From: Kribbibacterium absianum
Lineage (GTDB): Bacteria > Actinomycetota > Coriobacteriia > Coriobacteriales > Atopobiaceae
Direction: 5' to 3'
Assembly: GCF_030067705.1 (NCBI RefSeq)
Contig: NZ_JASJEX010000003.1
Location: forward strand, 372,001 to 436,000
DNA: 64,000 nucleotides
In this document: piece after piece, positions 7,502 to 53,167 of the stretch
Layout: every line of letters begins with the position of its first letter
Numbering within the stretch: position 1 is the stretch's first letter
Program-made: the position numbers and the translations under genes
The notes under the pieces: model-generated
Database searches by the model: none
What the model was told of the DNA's origin: nothing
Seen by the model: the letters and a program-made list of their open reading frames with translations, nothing else

Positions 7502-7577
7502 CCTGCAAATGGGGACGGAGCACTTTTACAGGCAGTGCAAAGACGTATCTGCAAAAACGCTCCGTCCCCCTTTACAT
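7502..7577. repeat. Inverted pair of CTGCAAA-arm palindromic repeats
   Basis: Two REP-like units face each other. The first is 7502-7532, arms CCTGCAAA / TTTACAGG with core GGGGACGGAGCA. The second, inverted, is 7549-7577, beginning CTGCAAAAACGCTCCGTCCC. They lie between the EIIB remnant and the EIIA gene. The same family occurs at 10390, 19281 (half) and 53108. Confidence 0.88.
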
Positions 7578-10389: not shown

Positions 10390-10420
10390 CCTGCAAAAGG
10401 GGACGGAGCACTTTTGCAGG
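10390..10420. repeat. CTGCAAAA-arm palindromic repeat
   Basis: A 31-nt REP-like unit begins one base after the GH1 stop codon. Arms are CCTGCAAAA / TTTTGCAGG around core GGGGACGGAGCA. It lies between two co-directional PTS-regulon genes. Confidence 0.9.
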
Positions 10421-11043: not shown

Positions 11044-11154
11044 GTGGACGCTTCGGTCAAAGCCGTTTGTCCACGCTCCATCGTGGTGCAGCGTGGACAA
11101 ACGGCTCTCTCCGAAGCGTCCAGGTGCGGACAAACGGCTCTCTCCGAAGCGTCC
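11044..11154. repeat. Composite repeat of three GTGGAC-arm units (copy 1)
   Basis: Three units of about 30 nt: an inverted one (11044-11074, arms GTGGAC / GTCCAC) and two direct ones (11093-11122 and 11126-11154) beginning with GGACAAACGGCTCTCTCCGA. A second copy of the same three-unit block, with identical 49- and 33-nt spacing, is at 29630-29741. Confidence 0.9.
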
Positions 11155-11158
11155 GCGG

Positions 11159-17749: not shown

Positions 17750-19201
17750 ATGGCTGTGGACAACAAGCAGATCGCTGTGGACGTGCTCGCGGCGGTCGGC
17801 GGCAAGGAGAACATCTCCGCCGCAACGCACTGCATGCCCCGACTGCGCCTGTCCATCAAGGACAAGTCCAAGCTGGACGAGACGGCGGTGAAGAACGTCA
17901 AGGGCGTGCTCGGCCTCAAGTGGGCGGGCGACCAGTGCCAGGTCATCATCGGCCAGAACGTGCCCAAGGTCTACGAGGCCGCGGTGGCCCTTGGCGTGAC
18001 CGGCGGCGGCTCCGTCGACGAGAGCCTCGACGCCCCTGCGGAGAAGCAGAAGCTCACGCCCAAGGGCGTCTGGGACGCGGTTCTCGACTTCATGGCCGGC
18101 ACCATGGTGCAGCTGATCCCGGTCATGATGGTCGGCGGCCTCTTCCGCACCCTGGCGGCCGTGCTCGGCCCGCAGATGTTCGGCGTCCTGGCCGAGGACA
18201 GCGCCGCGTACACGTTCCTGTACACGACGATGTACGATGCGGCGTTCTACTTCCTGCCCCTGTACCTCGGCTACGCCGGCGCCAAGAAGCTGGGCGCCAA
18301 CCCGATGCTTGGCGCGCTCTGCGGCGGCATCCTGATCTCGCCGACGATCATCGCGGCGGCGGCCGAGGGCGGCATGATCAGCATCTACGGCATCAATCTG
18401 GCCGCTGCCAACTACTCGCAGTCCGTGCTGCCGATCATGCTCTCGCTGCCGGTGCTCTACTTTGTCGAGAAGACCATGAAGAGGGTCATCCCCGACGTGC
18501 TCTCCACCATCTTCGTGCCGTTCCTGACGCTTGCCATCATGGTGCCGGTGATGTTCTTCGCGCTCGCGCCGCTCGGCAACTTCCTTGGCGGCCTGGTCGC
18601 CGGCTTCCTCTTTGGCCTGCAGAACCTCGGCGGCTTCGGCACGCTCATCGCCATGGCCCTTCTGGGCGCCTTCTGGCAGCTCATGGTCGTTGCCGGCATG
18701 CACGTGGCCGTGATCATGCTCGCCATCGTCACCATCACCGAGGTGGGCTACGACCCGTTCCTGTTCGTCTCCACCAACTGCGCCATGTGCGCCGTCTGGG
18801 GCGTCGCGATCGGTGCCGCGCTCCGTCTCGAGGACCCGGAGGAGAAGGGCCAGGCGTGGGGCGCCGTGGTCGCCGCTGTCCTCGGTGGCGTGACCGAGCC
18901 CGCGCTGTTCGGCGTCCTGCTCCGCTACCAGCGCACGATGTACGGCATGTTCGTCGGCGGCGCGGTGGGCGCGCTGGTCTCCGGCCTGCTCGGCGCGACC
19001 CTCACCACCCTCGGTGGCGCCACGAACTTCCTGGTCTTCCTCAATTACGCCGGCTGGGGCACGGGCAACCTCGTGGTCTCCGTCATTGGTCTGGCCGTGT
19101 CCTGTGTGGTCGCTGGGATCGTGACCTACCTCTTCGGCTTCTCCAAGGAGGAGCTGGGCGAGTCCGAGCCCGAGACCCCGAACGGCGTCCTTGCCGCGTA
19201 A
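17750..19201 (+). CDS. PTS EIIBC, glucose/beta-glucoside superfamily
   Basis: A 483-residue permease. An N-terminal EIIB domain (1-85) holds phospho-Cys28 in ATHCMPRLRL, and a polytopic EIIC domain (about 100-470, roughly ten membrane segments) contains the conserved TEPALFGV loop. There is no EIIA domain, so the Crr-like EIIA at 10449 is the likely partner. AGGGAGGAAA precedes the start. It sits in the LacI-operator regulon between the kinase and a GH140-like hydrolase, so it probably imports and phosphorylates a plant beta-glycoside. The substrate is not determinable from sequence. Confidence 0.92.
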   Translation: MAVDNKQIAVDVLAAVGGKENISAATHCMPRLRLSIKDKSKLDETAVKNVKGVLGLKWAGDQCQVIIGQNVPKVYEAAVALGVTGGGSVDESLDAPAEKQKLTPKGVWDAVLDFMAGTMVQLIPVMMVGGLFRTLAAVLGPQMFGVLAEDSAAYTFLYTTMYDAAFYFLPLYLGYAGAKKLGANPMLGALCGGILISPTIIAAAAEGGMISIYGINLAAANYSQSVLPIMLSLPVLYFVEKTMKRVIPDVLSTIFVPFLTLAIMVPVMFFALAPLGNFLGGLVAGFLFGLQNLGGFGTLIAMALLGAFWQLMVVAGMHVAVIMLAIVTITEVGYDPFLFVSTNCAMCAVWGVAIGAALRLEDPEEKGQAWGAVVAAVLGGVTEPALFGVLLRYQRTMYGMFVGGAVGALVSGLLGATLTTLGGATNFLVFLNYAGWGTGNLVVSVIGLAVSCVVAGIVTYLFGFSKEELGESEPETPNGVLAA

Positions 19202-19280
19202 ACCTCTTTCCGCACGCACGTACAAAACACACCGAGGTCGCGTGGCAGGCGGCCGGGCCCACAGGCTCGGTCGCCTCTTT

Positions 19281-19331
19281 CCTGCAGAAGGGGACGGAGG
19301 ACGTGACAAAGGGGCCAGAGCATTTTGTCAC
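19281..19331. repeat. Chimeric palindromic repeat: CTGCA-half joined to GTGACAAA unit
   Basis: The first 20 nt (19281-19300) are the left arm and core of the CTGCAAAA family (CCTGCAGAAGGGGACGGAGG). Two bases later a complete GTGACAAA-family unit follows (19303-19331, core GGGGCCAGAGCA). The second ends just before the ribosome binding site of the next gene. Confidence 0.9.
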
Positions 19332-19349
19332 GTGGTGAAGGAGTTGATG

Positions 19350-20954
19350 ATGGCTGAGACTTGGCGCCGGACGGTGCTGACGTTTGAAGCGGCCCGCGAG
19401 TACGCGGACCCCGTGCGCGACTGCGCGGTGGTGGCGACGTTCGCCGGGCCGTCTGGCGAGGAGATCCTCCGCGAGGCCTATTGGGACGGCGGCCGCACGT
19501 ACCGCGTGAGCTTTGCGCCGCCAGTGCCGGGCAGCTGGAACTGGTCGCTGGCCGCGCCTGCAGACTCCGGGCTGGACGGGCTTTTCGGTACGTTGGAGGC
19601 GGAGCCGTACCGCGGGGAACTGCCGATCTACCGGCACGGGTTTCTCCGCGTGGCCGAGAACCGTCGCTACCTCACGTACGCTGATGGCACGCCGTTCCTC
19701 TGGCTCGGCGACACGCACTGGGCCTTCGCGACCGGCGAGCGCTGGGACGAGAGCAACCATCCGGCCATGGGGTCGATGTTCCGCGGCATGGTGGACCGGC
19801 GCGTCGAGCAGGGCTTCTCGGTGTGCCAGGCGAACCTCCGCGCCAACGAGGCGGACGACCGGTACTGGCTGGACCCGGACGCCGAGAAGCCCGTTCCCAA
19901 CGTGGCGTTCTACCAGCAGGAATTGGACCGGCGCATGGCCTACGTTGCCGACGCCGGACTGGTGAATGCCCTCGGGCTTGCCTGGTACGACGAGCTGTTT
20001 CAACCCAACGGCATGGAGCAAATGAAGACGTTGGCTCGCTACGTGGTAGCTCGGTACGGGGCACTGCCCGTGGTGTGGACGCTGGCAGGCGAGGTCGCTG
20101 GCTACGATTCGGCGCACCGCGAGGAGCTCATCGCTGGCTGGGACGAGGTCGCGCGCGTCATCGAGTCGTGCGACGGCTACGGCCACCTCCAGACGGCGCA
20201 CTACACCACGCGCCGGCCCATGGAGGAGTACTACCAGGACGCGTCGTGGCACGACCTCACGCTGGGTCAGGCGGGCCACGGCGACTATCTGGTGGGGGAG
20301 GGCGACTACCGGGAGTTCTTCTCGGCCCATCACGAGAAGCCCTTCGTGGAGGGCGAGGCCATGTACGAGGGTTGCTCGACGCTCGAGGAGAACGGCAGCC
20401 GGCAGGTGACGCCCGCCATGGTGCGACGGGTCGCGTACATGGTCATGCAGCTGGGCGGTTGTGGTTACACCTACGGGGCGCAGGGCATCTGGGACTGCGT
20501 CTGGGACGAGGCGTTCTTCGAGGACCCGGCCAACGACGTGCTGGTGGGGATGTTCAACCGGTTCCATTGGACGTGGCGTGACGGAATCGACGCGCCGGGC
20601 GCCGTACAACTGGGTCACTGGAAGCGTTTTTACGAGGACGTGCGGTTCTGGGAGCTGGCGCCCTACGAGCGGCCGGGCGCGAACGGGGCCCGGTGGCGCA
20701 AGCAGCCCATGGCCACCGTGTCCGAGCAGTGCGACCGGATCGCGGCGTACTACACGGAGGCGGCGCGGAAGCCGCTGCGCGTGGAAGGACTGGCGGCCGG
20801 CGAGTGGACCTGGCGCTGGTTCGATCCGCGCACAGGGGAGTGGGGCGAGCCTTGCTCGATCGCGCTGGACGGCACGTGGACGCTGCCCCCGCGCCCAGAC
20901 TGCAACGATTGGTGCCTCACTGCATCAAAGACGGAACGTGACAAAATGCTCTGA
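19350..20954 (+). CDS. DUF5060/DUF4038 glycoside hydrolase, GH140 (apiosidase)-like
   Basis: A 534-residue protein. An N-terminal beta-sandwich (about 5-90, AEYxDP...FAGPSG..., WDGG-x-YRVSFAPPVPGSW) is typical of DUF5060. A (beta/alpha)8 DUF4038 domain (about 105-430, FLWLGDTHWAF, VVWTLAGE, HEKPFVEGEAMYEG) follows, and a small C-terminal beta domain ends the protein. DUF4038 proteins include GH140 endo-apiosidases that cut apiose linkages in rhamnogalacturonan II. No signal peptide, hence cytoplasmic. AAGGAG sits best for the ATG at 19350. The last residues, ending in DKML, and the stop are encoded by the palindromic repeat at 20938, so the native C-terminus may have been altered. The family assignment is solid; apiosidase activity is inferred. 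Confidence 0.72.
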   Translation: MAETWRRTVLTFEAAREYADPVRDCAVVATFAGPSGEEILREAYWDGGRTYRVSFAPPVPGSWNWSLAAPADSGLDGLFGTLEAEPYRGELPIYRHGFLRVAENRRYLTYADGTPFLWLGDTHWAFATGERWDESNHPAMGSMFRGMVDRRVEQGFSVCQANLRANEADDRYWLDPDAEKPVPNVAFYQQELDRRMAYVADAGLVNALGLAWYDELFQPNGMEQMKTLARYVVARYGALPVVWTLAGEVAGYDSAHREELIAGWDEVARVIESCDGYGHLQTAHYTTRRPMEEYYQDASWHDLTLGQAGHGDYLVGEGDYREFFSAHHEKPFVEGEAMYEGCSTLEENGSRQVTPAMVRRVAYMVMQLGGCGYTYGAQGIWDCVWDEAFFEDPANDVLVGMFNRFHWTWRDGIDAPGAVQLGHWKRFYEDVRFWELAPYERPGANGARWRKQPMATVSEQCDRIAAYYTEAARKPLRVEGLAAGEWTWRWFDPRTGEWGEPCSIALDGTWTLPPRPDCNDWCLTASKTERDKML

Positions 20955-20996
20955 CCCCTTTGTCACGGTGACATTGGGGTCAGAGCATTTTGTCAC
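20938..20996. repeat. Head-to-head pair of GTGACAAA-arm palindromic repeats
   Basis: Two 29-nt inverted units (20938-20966 and 20968-20996) are separated by one base. Arms are GTGACAAA / TTTGTCAC and the core (in one orientation) is GGGGTCAGAGCA. The first supplies the TGA stop of the GH140-like gene. The pair lies upstream of the RAYT transposase gene; a single unit of the same family lies just downstream of it at 22001. Confidence 0.95.
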
Positions 20997-21225
20997 GCCG
21001 CTTCATCTTTGATGTTGATAACTCCCGGGCTCTGTAGATTCAAGATTGCATCTAACAAAACCTGTCAGTCCGCAGGTAGGATAGGCAATCTCTGACCTGT
21101 TTCAGCAGCTTGTATGCATCGGTATCGATGGGTATATCGCGGGACTGTAGGGTGGGCAACCGGGGCCCTTTTCTTTGAGTCCCTCATTTCCTAGGGTCAT
21201 GCCTCTCCAAGGAGAGGAGGGCACC
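20997..21225. other. AT-richer leader before the transposase gene
   Basis: This stretch is clearly poorer in G+C than its surroundings and holds no convincing gene. It contains a short GGGC...GCCC hairpin followed by TTTTCTTT (about 21153-21176) and the purine-rich AAGGAGAGGAGG that serves the transposase start. The base composition suggests imported DNA travelling with the transposase. Confidence 0.5.
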
Positions 21226-21999
21226 ATGCCACGAGGGCCGCGACCGCGGAGCGAGGCTGGCCTGTATCACGTGAGCACGCGCGGGACGGGCCGCCACAGC
21301 ATCTTCGAGGACGACGAGGACAGGGCCTGCCTCAAGCGGCTTCTCGCGCGGGGCTGTGACACCCACGATGTCTCGGTGCTGGTGTGGTGCTTCATGGAGA
21401 ACCACGTCCACGCGCTGCTCGAGTCGCCCGCAGAGCCGCCGTCGGACTTTATGCGGGACGTCTTTTCGCACTATGCGGGGGAGTACAACCGTCGCCACGA
21501 CCATGTGGGGCATGACTTTCAGGGGCGGTTCCATGGCAGCCCGGTTGACGACGAGCGGCACCTTCAAGCCGTCGTCCCCTATATCCATCTCAATCCGGCA
21601 CACGGTGACTTTGATCGTGCGCGGAGCTTTGCCTGGAGCAGCTACCAAGAGGTTCTAAACGGAGGAGGTCTGGCCGATGTCGAGTGGGTTCTGGGCTTGT
21701 ACGGATCGGTGGAGGCGTTCGAGGACGCTCACCGGGTCGCCTTTGCTCGGCAGGAGGCCATCGTGCTCGCGCACGCGGGGAGGCATTTGACCGATGAGGA
21801 GGCGCGCGTCGTGTACGATCAGGTCCTCCTCGGCATGGGTATTGATGGGGAGCTCGGGGCAGTTGAGAAAGGGCTCCGCAATCGTGCGATCGGAGCCCTT
21901 CGGGCGGTTTGCTTGTCGGTTCGCCAGATCGAGCGTTTCTCTGGGCTGGGCCGTGGAATCATTCAGCGGGTGCCAGCAGAACCATCAATACTTGTATGA
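21226..21999 (+). CDS. REP-associated tyrosine transposase (RAYT, Y1/HUH family)
   Basis: A 257-residue single-strand DNA transposase-like protein of the Y1 family. The HUH motif is His60-Val-His62 in FMENHVHALLE. The catalytic Tyr is Tyr83 or Tyr87 in SHYAGEYNRRH, and the typical GHDFQGRFH and YIHLNPA segments follow. A C-terminal helix-turn-helix-like tail (LSVRQIERFSGLGRG) is present, as in RAYTs that carry a DnaA-like C-terminus. RAYTs are thought to cut and spread REP palindromes as single strands. Here the gene is flanked by GTGACAAA-family units on both sides (20938-20996, 22001-22029). The start at 21226 is preceded by AAGGAGAGGAGG. No IS-type terminal repeats of its own are seen. Confidence 0.93.
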   Translation: MPRGPRPRSEAGLYHVSTRGTGRHSIFEDDEDRACLKRLLARGCDTHDVSVLVWCFMENHVHALLESPAEPPSDFMRDVFSHYAGEYNRRHDHVGHDFQGRFHGSPVDDERHLQAVVPYIHLNPAHGDFDRARSFAWSSYQEVLNGGGLADVEWVLGLYGSVEAFEDAHRVAFARQEAIVLAHAGRHLTDEEARVVYDQVLLGMGIDGELGAVEKGLRNRAIGALRAVCLSVRQIERFSGLGRGIIQRVPAEPSILV

Positions 22000-22000
22000 C

Positions 22001-22029
22001 GTGACAAAATGCTCTGACCCCTTTGTCAC
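22001..22029. repeat. GTGACAAA-arm palindromic repeat downstream of RAYT
   Basis: A 29-nt unit beginning two bases after the transposase stop codon. On the minus strand it also provides the TGA stop (22026-22028) of the convergent DUF1593 gene. Confidence 0.95.
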
Positions 22030-27775: not shown

Positions 27776-27834
27776 GTGACAAAATGCTCTGACCCCAATG
27801 TCACCGTGACAATGGGGTCAGAGCATTTTGTCAC
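27776..27834. repeat. Head-to-head pair of GTGACAAA-arm palindromic repeats
   Basis: Two 29-nt inverted units (27776-27804 and 27806-27834), one base apart, with core GGGGTCAGAGCA. They lie between the convergent GH106-like gene and the membrane protein gene, where they could act as a bidirectional transcription or mRNA-end structure. Confidence 0.95.
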
Positions 27835-29629: not shown

Positions 29630-29741
29630 GTGGACGCTTCGGTCAAAGCCATTTGTCCACGCTCCAGCCCGCGACAGCGTGGACAAACGGCTCTCTCCCA
29701 AGCGTCCAGGTGTGGACAAACGGCTCTCTCCGAAGCGTCCA
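29630..29741. repeat. Composite repeat of three GTGGAC-arm units (copy 2)
   Basis: Three units at 29630-29660 (inverted), 29679-29708 and 29712-29741, with the same unit order and 49/33-nt spacing as copy 1 at 11044-11154 and only a few base differences. It fills most of the gap between the divergent gldA and folC genes. Confidence 0.92.
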
Positions 29742-36101: not shown

Positions 36102-36130
36102 GTGCAAACGGGGACAGTCCCTAAATGCAC
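36102..36130. repeat. GTGCAAAC-arm palindromic repeat
   Basis: A 29-nt unit with imperfect left arm GTGCAAAC, core GGGGACAGTCCC and right arm AAATGCAC. The same odd left arm is found in the unit at 37134-37162, next to the intact XRE gene from which the neighbouring fragment derives. Confidence 0.88.
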
Positions 36131-36142
36131 ATCGGCGGCCGG

Positions 36143-36400
36143 GTCCTGCAGGCTCACGTGCCGCTCCACCATCATGCGGTCCAGGCGCAGCACGATGCGG
36201 CCGTTCTGCTCGGTCATGGTCACACCAGCCCTTCCACATCGTCCTGCAGCCGGTGCCCGTAGGCGAACATGGTCGAGAGCCAAAGCACCACGAGGCCCAG
36301 GAGCAGGCCCATCTGGCTCCAGGAGGTCTCGACGGCGCCCCCAGAGACGCCGAAGACCACCCACGTCGCCACGAGCCCCCACAGGGAGATGCTCACGCAG
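36143..36400 (-). pseudogene. 258-bp duplicate of the XRE/DUF2975 junction
   Basis: This segment matches 37311-37568 at 256 of 258 positions. It contains the first 25 codons of the XRE regulator (start at 36217) and the last 60 or so codons of the DUF2975 membrane protein (stop at 36220). It is bounded on both sides by palindromic repeats (36102-36130 and 36400-36428). The right repeat supplies an in-frame ATG (ending 36405) giving a 61-codon ORF, which is unlikely to be functional. Confidence 0.92.
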
Positions 36401-36428
36401 TGCATTTGGAGACGACCCCTAAATGCAC
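36400..36428. repeat. Degenerate GTGCATTT-arm palindromic repeat
   Basis: Arms GTGCATTT / AAATGCAC are intact but the core is altered to GGAGACGACCCC. It marks the end of the duplicated XRE/DUF2975 fragment. Confidence 0.85.
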
Positions 36429-37163: not shown

Positions 37164-37385
37164 TCAATCGTCGATGTACTCGAGCAGGTCGCCCGGCTGG
37201 CAGTCCAGCGCCTCGCAGATGGCCGCCAGCGTCGAGAGCCTCAGGGCCGACACGCGGTTGTTCTTGATCTTCGACAGGTTGGCCTGCGTGATCCCCACCT
37301 GGGCCGCCAGGTCCTGCAGGCTCACGTGCCGCTCCACCATCATGCGGTCCAGGCGCAGCACGATGCGGCCGTTCTGCTCGGTCAT
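37164..37385 (-). CDS. XRE-family regulator (YozG-like)
   Basis: A 73-residue single-domain Cro/C1-type helix-turn-helix protein (VSLQDLAAQVGITQANLSKIKNNRV as the core). It begins 2 nt after the stop of the DUF2975 membrane protein. XRE + DUF2975 is a well-known pair in Gram-positive bacteria, the small regulator probably controlling the pair from the shared promoter at about 38000. Its 5' portion is duplicated at 36143. Confidence 0.9.
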   Translation of the reverse strand: MTEQNGRIVLRLDRMMVERHVSLQDLAAQVGITQANLSKIKNNRVSALRLSTLAAICEALDCQPGDLLEYIDD

Positions 37386-37387
37386 GG

Positions 37388-37942
37388 TCACACCAGCCCT
37401 TCCACATCGTCCTGCAGCCGGTGCCCGTAGGCGAACATGGTCGAGAGCCAAAGCACCACGAGGCCCAGGAGCAGGCCCATCTGGCTCCAGGAGGTCTCGA
37501 CGGCGCCCCCAGAGACGCCGAAGATCACCCACGTGGCCACGAGCCCCCACAGGGAGATGCTCACGCAGAACAGGCCGATCTCGCGCACCATGCGCACGTT
37601 GTCCGGCGTGAACGGCGTGTTGGTCTCGCTGAACTCGGGCTGTGCGGCCAGCGAGCGCGAGATGAGCGTGATGTTGCGGGCCACCATGGCGGAGAGGCCG
37701 AGCGCCACGACGCCGTAGCCCAAGATCGTGCGGAAAGCGGCAAGGCTGCGGTCGACGTGCTCGACCGAGACGCCCATCATCTCGATGGAGCCGCCCTCGA
37801 TTCCACCCACAAAGAGGCTGTCGGCGACCTCGGGCACCACGAACGTCCAGATCAGCGCGCACGCGACCAGGGCGGTCCCCACCCAGAGGAGGATTTGGAC
37901 GACCATGGCGATGATTGAGACGGGCTTGGAGTAGTTCTTCAT
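37388..37942 (-). CDS. DUF2975 membrane protein
   Basis: A 184-residue protein with four predicted membrane helices (about 8-30, 75-95, 130-150, 155-175). It matches the DUF2975 layout and is co-transcribed with the XRE regulator downstream. The start MKNYSK at 37942 is preceded by GAAAGG. Role unknown; such pairs are proposed to sense membrane state or signals. Its 3' third is duplicated at 36220-36400. Confidence 0.85.
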   Translation of the reverse strand: MKNYSKPVSIIAMVVQILLWVGTALVACALIWTFVVPEVADSLFVGGIEGGSIEMMGVSVEHVDRSLAAFRTILGYGVVALGLSAMVARNITLISRSLAAQPEFSETNTPFTPDNVRMVREIGLFCVSISLWGLVATWVIFGVSGGAVETSWSQMGLLLGLVVLWLSTMFAYGHRLQDDVEGLV

Positions 37943-41202: not shown

Positions 41203-41231
41203 GTGACAAAGGGGTCAGAGCATTTTGTCAC
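41203..41231. repeat. GTGACAAA-arm palindromic repeat
   Basis: A 29-nt unit, core GGGGTCAGAGCA, lies between the LLM oxidoreductase gene and the flavodoxin-ferredoxin gene; it ends 8 nt before the latter's ribosome binding site. Confidence 0.95.
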
Positions 41232-41246
41232 GTCATTGGAGGTCTG

Positions 41247-42026
41247 ATGATTCTGTTCTTCACCGCCACCGGCAACGACCAGTACGTGGCCGAAGCCATC
41301 GCCGAGCGCTGCGGCGAGAACGAGCAGGCGCTGTCCATCACGGAGCTCCTCTGGAGCGAGCGCCGCGAACTGTCGCTGCAGCCCTTCGAGCGCTTCGGCC
41401 TCGTGACGCCCACCTACTTCTGGGGGCTGCCGGCACCCGTGGTCACGTTTCTCGAGGGCCTTGCGCTCGACATCTCTCAGGACCCCGACCCGTACACCTT
41501 CGTCGTTGCCACCTACGGCACGACCACCGGCGGCCTCGGCGCCCAGACCAACGCCCTGTTCCAACGTCTCGGTGCGCCGCTCAAGGCGCGCTTCTCGGTC
41601 AAGATGCCGGACACGTGGACGCCCATCTTTAATCTGTCTGACAAGACCGCCGTGGCCGAGAAGGTGCGCCGCGGCGACGAGCAGGCGCACAAGGTCGCGC
41701 ATGCCATTGCCGCGCACGTCACTGGTAACCACATGGGCCTCTCCGTGCCCTGGGCCATCGCCCAACATGCCTACGCCCGGTACGCCCCAGCTCGCCAGTG
41801 CTATCACCTCGCGGTCAACGACGCTTGCATCGGCTGCGGCCTCTGCGCCCGGCAGTGTCCGGTGCGGGCCATCCAAATGCGGGACAACCGGCCGGCCTGG
41901 GTCAAGGATCGATGCGCGATGTGCCTCGGCTGTTTGCACCGCTGCCCGGTCAACGCGATTACCTACAACCATGCGACCCAGGGCCGCGGCCAGTATGTGC
42001 ATCCAGGCGTGAAGCTGCCAAAGTGA
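41247..42026 (+). CDS. EFR1-type flavodoxin-ferredoxin fusion
   Basis: A 259-residue electron carrier. An N-terminal flavodoxin-like domain (about 1-150) has the FMN-phosphate loop FFTATGNDQYVAEAI, and a C-terminal ferredoxin domain carries two 4Fe-4S clusters: CIGCGLCARQCP and CAMCLGCLHRCP. Matches EFR1-family ferrodoxins common in anaerobes. TTGGAGG precedes the start. Likely soluble and involved in low-potential electron transfer. Confidence 0.9.
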   Translation: MILFFTATGNDQYVAEAIAERCGENEQALSITELLWSERRELSLQPFERFGLVTPTYFWGLPAPVVTFLEGLALDISQDPDPYTFVVATYGTTTGGLGAQTNALFQRLGAPLKARFSVKMPDTWTPIFNLSDKTAVAEKVRRGDEQAHKVAHAIAAHVTGNHMGLSVPWAIAQHAYARYAPARQCYHLAVNDACIGCGLCARQCPVRAIQMRDNRPAWVKDRCAMCLGCLHRCPVNAITYNHATQGRGQYVHPGVKLPK

Positions 42027-53107: not shown

Positions 53108-53167
53108 CCTGCAAAAATGCTCCGTCCCCCTTTGCAGCTGCAATGGGGGACGGAGCATTTTTGCAGG
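53108..53167. repeat. Head-to-head pair of CTGCAAAA-arm palindromic repeats
   Basis: Two adjacent 30-nt inverted units (53108-53137 and 53138-53167), core GGGGACGGAGCA, forming a near-perfect 60-nt palindrome between the convergent thrS and STM3941-like genes. Confidence 0.95.

What the first reader, a model, noticed from the sequence alone, without database searches (positions are those of the whole stretch)
20938..22029. RAYT gene bracketed by its probable cognate repeats
The HUH/Y1 protein at 21226-21999 lies between a head-to-head GTGACAAA pair (20938-20996) and a single unit (22001-22029) starting two bases after its stop. The leader is AT-richer than the surroundings. This is the standard REPtron layout and suggests that family a is mobilised by this enzyme. 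Families b to d may be cross-mobilised or have other RAYTs.
Basis: partly seen in the sequence, partly recalled or inferred. Interest (0 to 1): 0.6.

Follow-up and report, generated by a model that had tools for sequence, protein, structure and literature searches.

The report
Transposase with its own local repeats
A gut-type bacterium carries six relatives of one DNA-cutting enzyme, nearly all flanked by their own private short hairpin repeat, and in the four families that could be tested those repeats pile up near their own enzyme gene, which supports the view that each enzyme spreads its own repeat, mostly nearby.

Summary
An intact 257-aa HUH/Y1 protein (21226-21999) sits between a head-to-head pair of 29-nt hairpins (20938-20996) and a single unit (22001-22029). 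The GT[AG]G foot that defines REPs is absent. The loop carries GGGGTCAG, which fits GGGGWSAS. The better label is therefore TIRYT/TIRtron (TnpAY1 subclass 2.1), not a canonical REPtron. Across 108 related loci, 84 have matching repeats on both sides, against 1% of mismatched flank pairs. Copies of a family lie near their own gene: family a, 3 of 5 remote loci within 40 kb (expected 0.2); e, 5 of 22; d, 6 of 53; f, 18 of 29 (expected 1.1, P 3e-19, falling with distance, among core chromosomal genes). Other pairings show almost none of this. Units of a and c often have a YGATD pentamer exactly 13 nt outside the hairpin. Cognate pairing is well supported; cutting and mobilisation are inferred. 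The kind is known; the local territories and spaced pentamer were not found in the papers I could read.

The parts
21226..21999 (+). RAYT-a / TIRYT: 257-aa HUH/Y1 endonuclease (N59-H60-V61-H62; catalytic-type Y119 in YIHLNP; C-terminal helical region)
   Evidence: Pfam Y1_Tnp E 3.9e-11; NCBIfam REP_Tyr_transpos E 5e-16, below its cut-off; HUH residues and Y119 conserved in alignments; AlphaFold model pLDDT 92.5; best PDB fold match 4er8, E 1.6e-6
20938..20966 (-). family a hairpin unit, left member of head-to-head pair
20968..20996 (+). family a hairpin unit, right member of head-to-head pair
   Evidence: the pair folds at -28.9 kcal/mol
22001..22029 (-). family a unit one base after the RAYT stop; as read on the - strand its GTGA gives the stop of the convergent Sde182-like gene
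21010..21014 (+). TGATG, 13 nt outside unit 20968-20996
21983..21987 (-). TGATG (CATCA on +), 13 nt outside unit 22001-22029, inside the last codons of the RAYT gene
20923..20927 (-). TGATG (CATCA on +), 10 nt outside unit 20938-20966
20997..21225 (+). AT-richer leader between the pair and the RAYT start
   Evidence: GC 52% vs 67%
19303..19331 (+). family a unit between a PTS EIIBC gene and the apiosidase-like gene (one loop change, GGGGCC)
27776..27804 (-). family a unit, left member of a second head-to-head pair
27806..27834 (+). family a unit, right member of the second pair
41203..41231 (+). single family a unit with TGATG at 41245-41249
7503..7577 (.). two family c units (7503-7531 +, 7549-7577 -): orphan family sharing the GGGGWCRGAGC loop with a
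10391..10419 (+). family c unit with TGATA 13 nt outside
53109..53166 (.). head-to-head pair of family c units with CGATG / TGATT 13 nt outside on either side

Best explanation
The locus is a TIRtron: a RAYT-like HUH/Y1 endonuclease (TIRYT, TnpAY1 subclass 2.1) with its private 29-nt hairpin repeat. Most likely the enzyme recognises the folded single-stranded unit, with the stem giving family identity and the GGGGWC loop shared across families. It would cut outside the hairpin, with the YGATD pentamer 13 nt away as the candidate site, and move single units or head-to-head pairs as ssDNA, inserting mostly within tens of kilobases of its own gene. SHOWN: anatomy, intact catalytic residues and predicted fold, one repeat family per paralogue, matching repeats on both sides of most related genes, local enrichment of a family around its own gene but not around others, the fixed-distance pentamer in families a and c, and one pair of relatives whose homology runs from repeat to repeat only. 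INFERRED: binding, strand choice, cut site, the ssDNA intermediate, and that local enrichment comes from local (cis-biased) transposition.
For: Six paralogues, each next to a different family. Copy numbers: a 11, b 77, c 30, d 198, e 30, f 46. 84 of 108 related loci have the same repeat on both sides; the threshold is the 99th percentile of mismatched flank pairs. Repeat similarity tracks protein similarity: Mantel r 0.61, 0 of 2000 permutations. Enrichment within 40 kb of the own gene: a 3/5 (exp 0.2, P 5e-4), d 6/53 (1.9, P 0.013), e 5/22 (0.8, P 1e-3), f 18/29 (1.1, P 3e-19). Family f falls from 0.31 loci per kb at 2-20 kb to 0.05 beyond 40 kb and 0.003 off the contig. Contig C5 has native composition, a tRNA-Gln, dnaE and glmU, so it is not an obvious island or plasmid. 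YGATD at offset 13 in 17 of 41 a+c units against 0.55% per position elsewhere. L131/L136: homology spans repeat to repeat, outer flanks unrelated. Fold match to RAYT 4ER8 and to IS608/ISDra2 TnpA.
Against: No biochemical data. RAYT-a has no close orthologue (best 44%, 43% over most of its length), so it cannot be shown that family a travels with it in other species, and no empty site was found. Family a has only five remote loci, so its own clustering rests on three. Family d is only mildly enriched. Genome G149 holds 61 family-b-like repeats but no RAYT-b match, although it is a 76% complete MAG. Most close pairs behind the Mantel test share synteny, so common descent of the locus explains part of it. 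The 13 nt between hairpin and pentamer differ between family a copies, so the pentamer may mark a target rather than the element's end. Family f shows no such pentamer.
Confidence: 0.72

Rival explanations
1. Domesticated pair: the enzyme and its hairpins now serve a host function (ssDNA or RNA processing, replication-fork or mRNA 3'-end roles). The repeats are kept where useful and no longer move.
For: The gene is single-copy with low-identity paralogues. Many units sit directly after stop codons. Known RAYTs are described as domesticated (PMC8266576).
Against: Many private families differing between genomes, identical hairpins with different flanks, distance decay around the own gene and the repeat-to-repeat homology of L131/L136 all point to spread.
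Confidence: 0.15
2. Clustering is a by-product: a segment carrying the enzyme and its repeats was acquired together, or repeats multiplied by local duplication and conversion, and the enzyme is a passenger.
For: Family a lies in a carbohydrate-use region. Families d and f form short tandem arrays.
Against: The family f zone contains dnaE, glmU, tRNA-Gln and native composition. Loci within 500 bp were merged before testing. Each family is enriched at its own gene, not at others.
Confidence: 0.12
3. The hairpins are ordinary regulatory palindromes (terminators or operators) that happen to flank the gene.
For: Several lie between genes or at gene ends.
Against: No T-run follows the family a units. 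84 of 108 related genes have matched flanking repeats. Families differ by stem but share the loop motif across phyla.
Confidence: 0.03
4. Canonical REPtron with GTAG-tagged REPs.
For: HUH/Y1 protein, fold closest to 4ER8, flanking repeats, REPIN-like pair.
Against: No GT[AG]G foot 5' of any family a hairpin on either strand. Protein length and the FQ and YIHLNP motifs fit subclass 2.1, for which REPs were not found (PMC6006769).
Confidence: 0.05

Closest known systems
TIRYT / TIRtron (Di Nocera et al. 2013, PMC3733652)
   Same: HUH/Y1 gene flanked by private inverted repeats instead of GTAG REPs, GGGGWSAS motif, single or dimeric repeats, different repeats for different genes of one genome
   Different: Here up to ~200 copies per family, six enzyme-family pairs in 2.2 Mb, local territories around the gene, and a pentamer at fixed distance; the papers I read do not report the last two
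TnpAY1 subclass 2.1 (Quentin et al. 2018, PMC6006769; Bertels group 1)
   Same: Length about 240-260 aa, NHVH, FQ, Y[IV]HLNP, C-terminal HTH-like extension
   Different: That study found no REP-like repeats for this subclass; here 84 of 108 related loci have matched flanking repeats
RAYT / TnpA_REP with REP or REPIN (E. coli, 4ER8; P. fluorescens, PMC3116915)
   Same: Predicted fold, HUH and tyrosine, hairpin repeats, head-to-head pairs
   Different: No GT[AG]G foot; REPIN doublets in SBW25 are reported as randomly distributed, here copies lie near the gene
IS200/IS605 TnpA (IS608, ISDra2)
   Same: Catalytic fold; short target pentamers such as TTGAT of ISDra2 resemble YGATD (from memory)
   Different: Longer protein with C-terminal region, no multicopy gene, no tnpB seen next to it

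Membership tests
TIRYT / TIRtron (TnpAY1 subclass 2.1) | HUH motif and catalytic tyrosine of the Y1 family | tested here: met
   N59-H60-V61-H62 and Y119; fold match 4er8
TIRYT / TIRtron (TnpAY1 subclass 2.1) | Gene flanked on both sides by inverted repeats that are not GTAG REPs | tested here: met
TIRYT / TIRtron (TnpAY1 subclass 2.1) | GGGGWSAS motif in the repeats | tested here: met
   GGGGTCAG in family a; definition from PMC3733652
TIRYT / TIRtron (TnpAY1 subclass 2.1) | Repeats form a multicopy genomic family | tested here: met
   11 matches genome-wide, 8 with at most one mismatch
TIRYT / TIRtron (TnpAY1 subclass 2.1) | C-terminal helix-turn-helix extension | tested here: inconclusive
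   No HTH hit for the window protein itself, but HTH_23 in 17 of 58 relatives and helices at 215-247 in the model
Canonical RAYT / REPtron | GT[AG]G tetranucleotide at the 5' foot of the hairpin | tested here: not met
   Bases 5' of family a units on either strand: GGAC, CACG, CACC, CGGC, TGGC, CCAC, TGAC, GAAC and the like
Canonical RAYT / REPtron | Enzyme cuts its single-stranded repeat | not testable with these tools
   needs protein and oligonucleotides
IS200/IS605 insertion sequence | Multiple near-identical transposase copies in the genome | tested here: not met
   The nearest paralogue is 38% identical

The most novel reading that the evidence does not exclude
TIRYT enzymes act preferentially in cis: each spreads its own hairpin family over a zone of tens of kilobases around its gene, so that several enzyme-and-repeat pairs hold separate, partly overlapping territories on one chromosome, with insertion or cutting set by a pentamer 13 nt from the hairpin in at least two families.
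Probability: 0.45. Interest if true: 0.62.

Novelty: new member of a known kind. Interest (0 to 1): 0.47.

Why it matters
For most RAYT-like genes the link between enzyme and repeat rests on adjacency alone. Several enzyme-repeat pairs in one small genome, each concentrated around its own gene with the others as internal controls, make the cognate hypothesis testable by genomics. They also suggest that these enzymes act locally, unlike the genome-wide scatter reported for REPINs. They offer a set of hairpin-enzyme pairs for in vitro specificity tests, and a candidate cut or target site to test.

Tried and rejected
(2) Pattern GGGGWCRGAGCAYTTTTGTCAC over the family was mistyped by one base and failed its own positive control; discarded and replaced. 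(3) PDB sequence search found no relative; the fold search did. (4) A general YGATD signal in all relatives was not found: it is clear in families a and c, seen in a few b and d units and in an Olsenella/Thermophilibacter group, and absent in f. (5) Protein-repeat correlation as independent proof of co-evolution: weakened because most close pairs are syntenic. (6) Horizontal island or plasmid as the cause of family f clustering: not supported. (7) Family b clustering could not be tested because its list of positions was truncated; family g copies were not counted.

Full report
Observation. The gene 21226-21999 encodes 257 residues with a Y1_Tnp domain (E 3.9e-11). It is preceded by a head-to-head pair of 29-nt units (20938-20966 and 20968-20996) and followed, one base after its stop, by a single unit (22001-22029). 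The core GTGACAAA occurs 11 times in the window against 0.75 expected. The leader is AT-rich, 52% G+C against 67%. The single unit folds weakly as ssDNA (-4.7 to -5.7 kcal/mol) and the pair strongly (-28.9, z -9.9).

What the protein is. The HUH residues are conserved across relatives, and the tyrosine of YIHLNP (Y119) is invariant in 19 relatives and at least 90% conserved in 58. An AlphaFold model from 58 sequences (pLDDT 92.5) finds the E. coli RAYT-hairpin complex 4ER8 first (E 1.6e-6), then the ISDra2 and IS608 TnpA. Length, NHVH, FQ, Y[IV]HLNP and the C-terminal helical extension fit TnpAY1 subclass 2.1 (PMC6006769), which its authors equate provisionally with the TIRYTs of Di Nocera (PMC3733652). 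The family a loop GGGGTCAG fits the GGGGWSAS motif of TIRs. The GT[AG]G foot of canonical REPs is missing on both strands. I therefore file it as a TIRtron, not as a canonical REPtron.

One enzyme, one family. The genome (2.18 Mb, 7 contigs) holds five further homologues at 31-38% identity to this one. Each lies beside a different hairpin family: a here; b (GTGCATTTGGGGACAGTCCCCAAATGCAC) at L002; f (GGGAC...GTGTCCGGCACC...GTCCC) at L003, on its 5' side only; e (GAGACAGATCAAAGAGAC...) at L004; d (TGGACAAACGGCTTTGACCGAAGCGTCCA) at L005; g (CCTCCTGGGGTGCCACGCACCCCAGGAGG) at L006. Genome counts, with the mismatches allowed in each search, are a 11, b 77, c 30, d 198, e 30, f 46. Family c (CTGCAAAAGGGGACGGAGCACTTTTGCAG) has none.

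Relatives. Homologues occur in 83 of 140 genomes of the same family; named relatives are Atopobiaceae, Olsenella, Collinsella, Thermophilibacter, Eggerthellaceae and, further away, Bacillota and others. In 108 loci I compared the flank upstream of the gene with the flank downstream. 84 score above the 99th percentile of mismatched pairs; the null contains some near-duplicate loci, which makes the threshold conservative. The shared repeats mostly keep GGGGAC/GGGAC in the loop while the stems differ. Repeat similarity follows protein similarity (Mantel r 0.61, 0 of 2000 permutations; all pairs with at least 70% identity share the repeat, almost none below 50%). Many close pairs are syntenic, so shared descent of the locus explains part of this. 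One pair is more telling: L131 and L136, 74% identical, align from the upstream repeat to the downstream repeat and not beyond, as expected of a unit that moved.

Local territories. With units within 500 bp merged and those next to the own gene removed, each testable family is enriched within 40 kb of its own gene: a 3 of 5 (expected 0.2, P 5e-4), d 6 of 53 (1.9, P 0.013), e 5 of 22 (0.8, P 0.001), f 18 of 29 (1.1, P 3e-19). The other family-gene combinations serve as controls. They are near expectation except c near RAYT-a (4 of 20, P 0.005), c near g (P 0.035), and d near g (P 0.05), whose gene is only 20 kb from RAYT-d. These P values are not corrected for about 30 comparisons; f, a and e remain notable, d alone would not. 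Family f falls with distance from 0.31 loci per kb (2-20 kb) to 0.05 (beyond 40 kb) and 0.003 elsewhere. Its contig carries dnaE, glmU and a tRNA-Gln and has native composition, so a recently acquired island or plasmid is unlikely. In P. fluorescens SBW25, REPIN doublets are reported as randomly distributed (PMC3116915); local zones were not described in the papers I could search, which exclude most subscription journals.

A spaced pentamer. In families a and c, YGATD begins exactly 13 nt after the hairpin in 17 of 41 units; elsewhere the rate is 0.55% per position (binomial P 6e-28 if copies were independent, which they are not fully). In family a the 13 nt differ between copies whose hairpins are identical, which suggests a target or cut-site preference rather than an inherited tail. 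In family c the tail is partly conserved (GTCGTTGCAG). Some family b and d units and an Olsenella/Thermophilibacter group also show TGATG outside the hairpin; family f does not. I take it as a candidate cut or target site. The resemblance to TTGAT of ISDra2 is from memory.

Families a and c. They share the loop GGGGWCRGAGCAY and the pentamer, hybrids exist (C2:311384-311442), and c is mildly enriched near RAYT-a. RAYT-a may have served c earlier, or may serve both.

Family a is not found in 139 other genomes of the family at up to two mismatches, so it does not abound in relatives without the enzyme. For b, genome G149 holds 61 variant repeats without a RAYT-b match, but it is a 76% complete draft.

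Verdict. The finding is real and the cognate reading is well supported, with the label corrected to TIRtron. The kind is known. The local zones and the spaced pentamer are worth follow-up. Binding, cutting and movement are not shown here.

Noticed in passing
window 36102-36428 and 37296-37568: Two family b units bracket a ~265-bp, 98% identical copy of a neighbouring host gene fragment (helix-turn-helix regulator end / membrane protein start). The right edge of the copy coincides with the first base of a unit. It looks like host DNA captured between two repeat units.
   Followed up: partly
window 11045-11155, 29631-29741: Family d units in short head-to-tail arrays of period 33; 198 matches genome-wide, making it the most abundant family. 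Its enzyme is at G000:C1:174133.
   Followed up: partly
G000 C2:311384-311442 (L057): Head-to-head pair with family a stem and family c loop, a hybrid of the two families.
   Followed up: partly
genome G149: 61 copies of a family-b-like repeat (GTGGATTGGGGGACCGTCCC) in a draft genome with no RAYT-b match.
   Followed up: partly
L003 (G000:C5:58131-61874): RAYT-f has its repeats only on the 5' side; dozens of degenerate family f units lie over about 100 kb of the contig.
   Followed up: partly
window 20938-20954: The apiosidase-like gene (ORF 19191-20954) ends inside a family a unit, whose TGA serves as its stop codon.
   Followed up: no
L177, L180, L185-L189 and other Bacillota loci: Bacillota relatives carry hairpins of the form stem-GGGGACGGTTCTC-stem next to the same kind of gene.
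   Followed up: no
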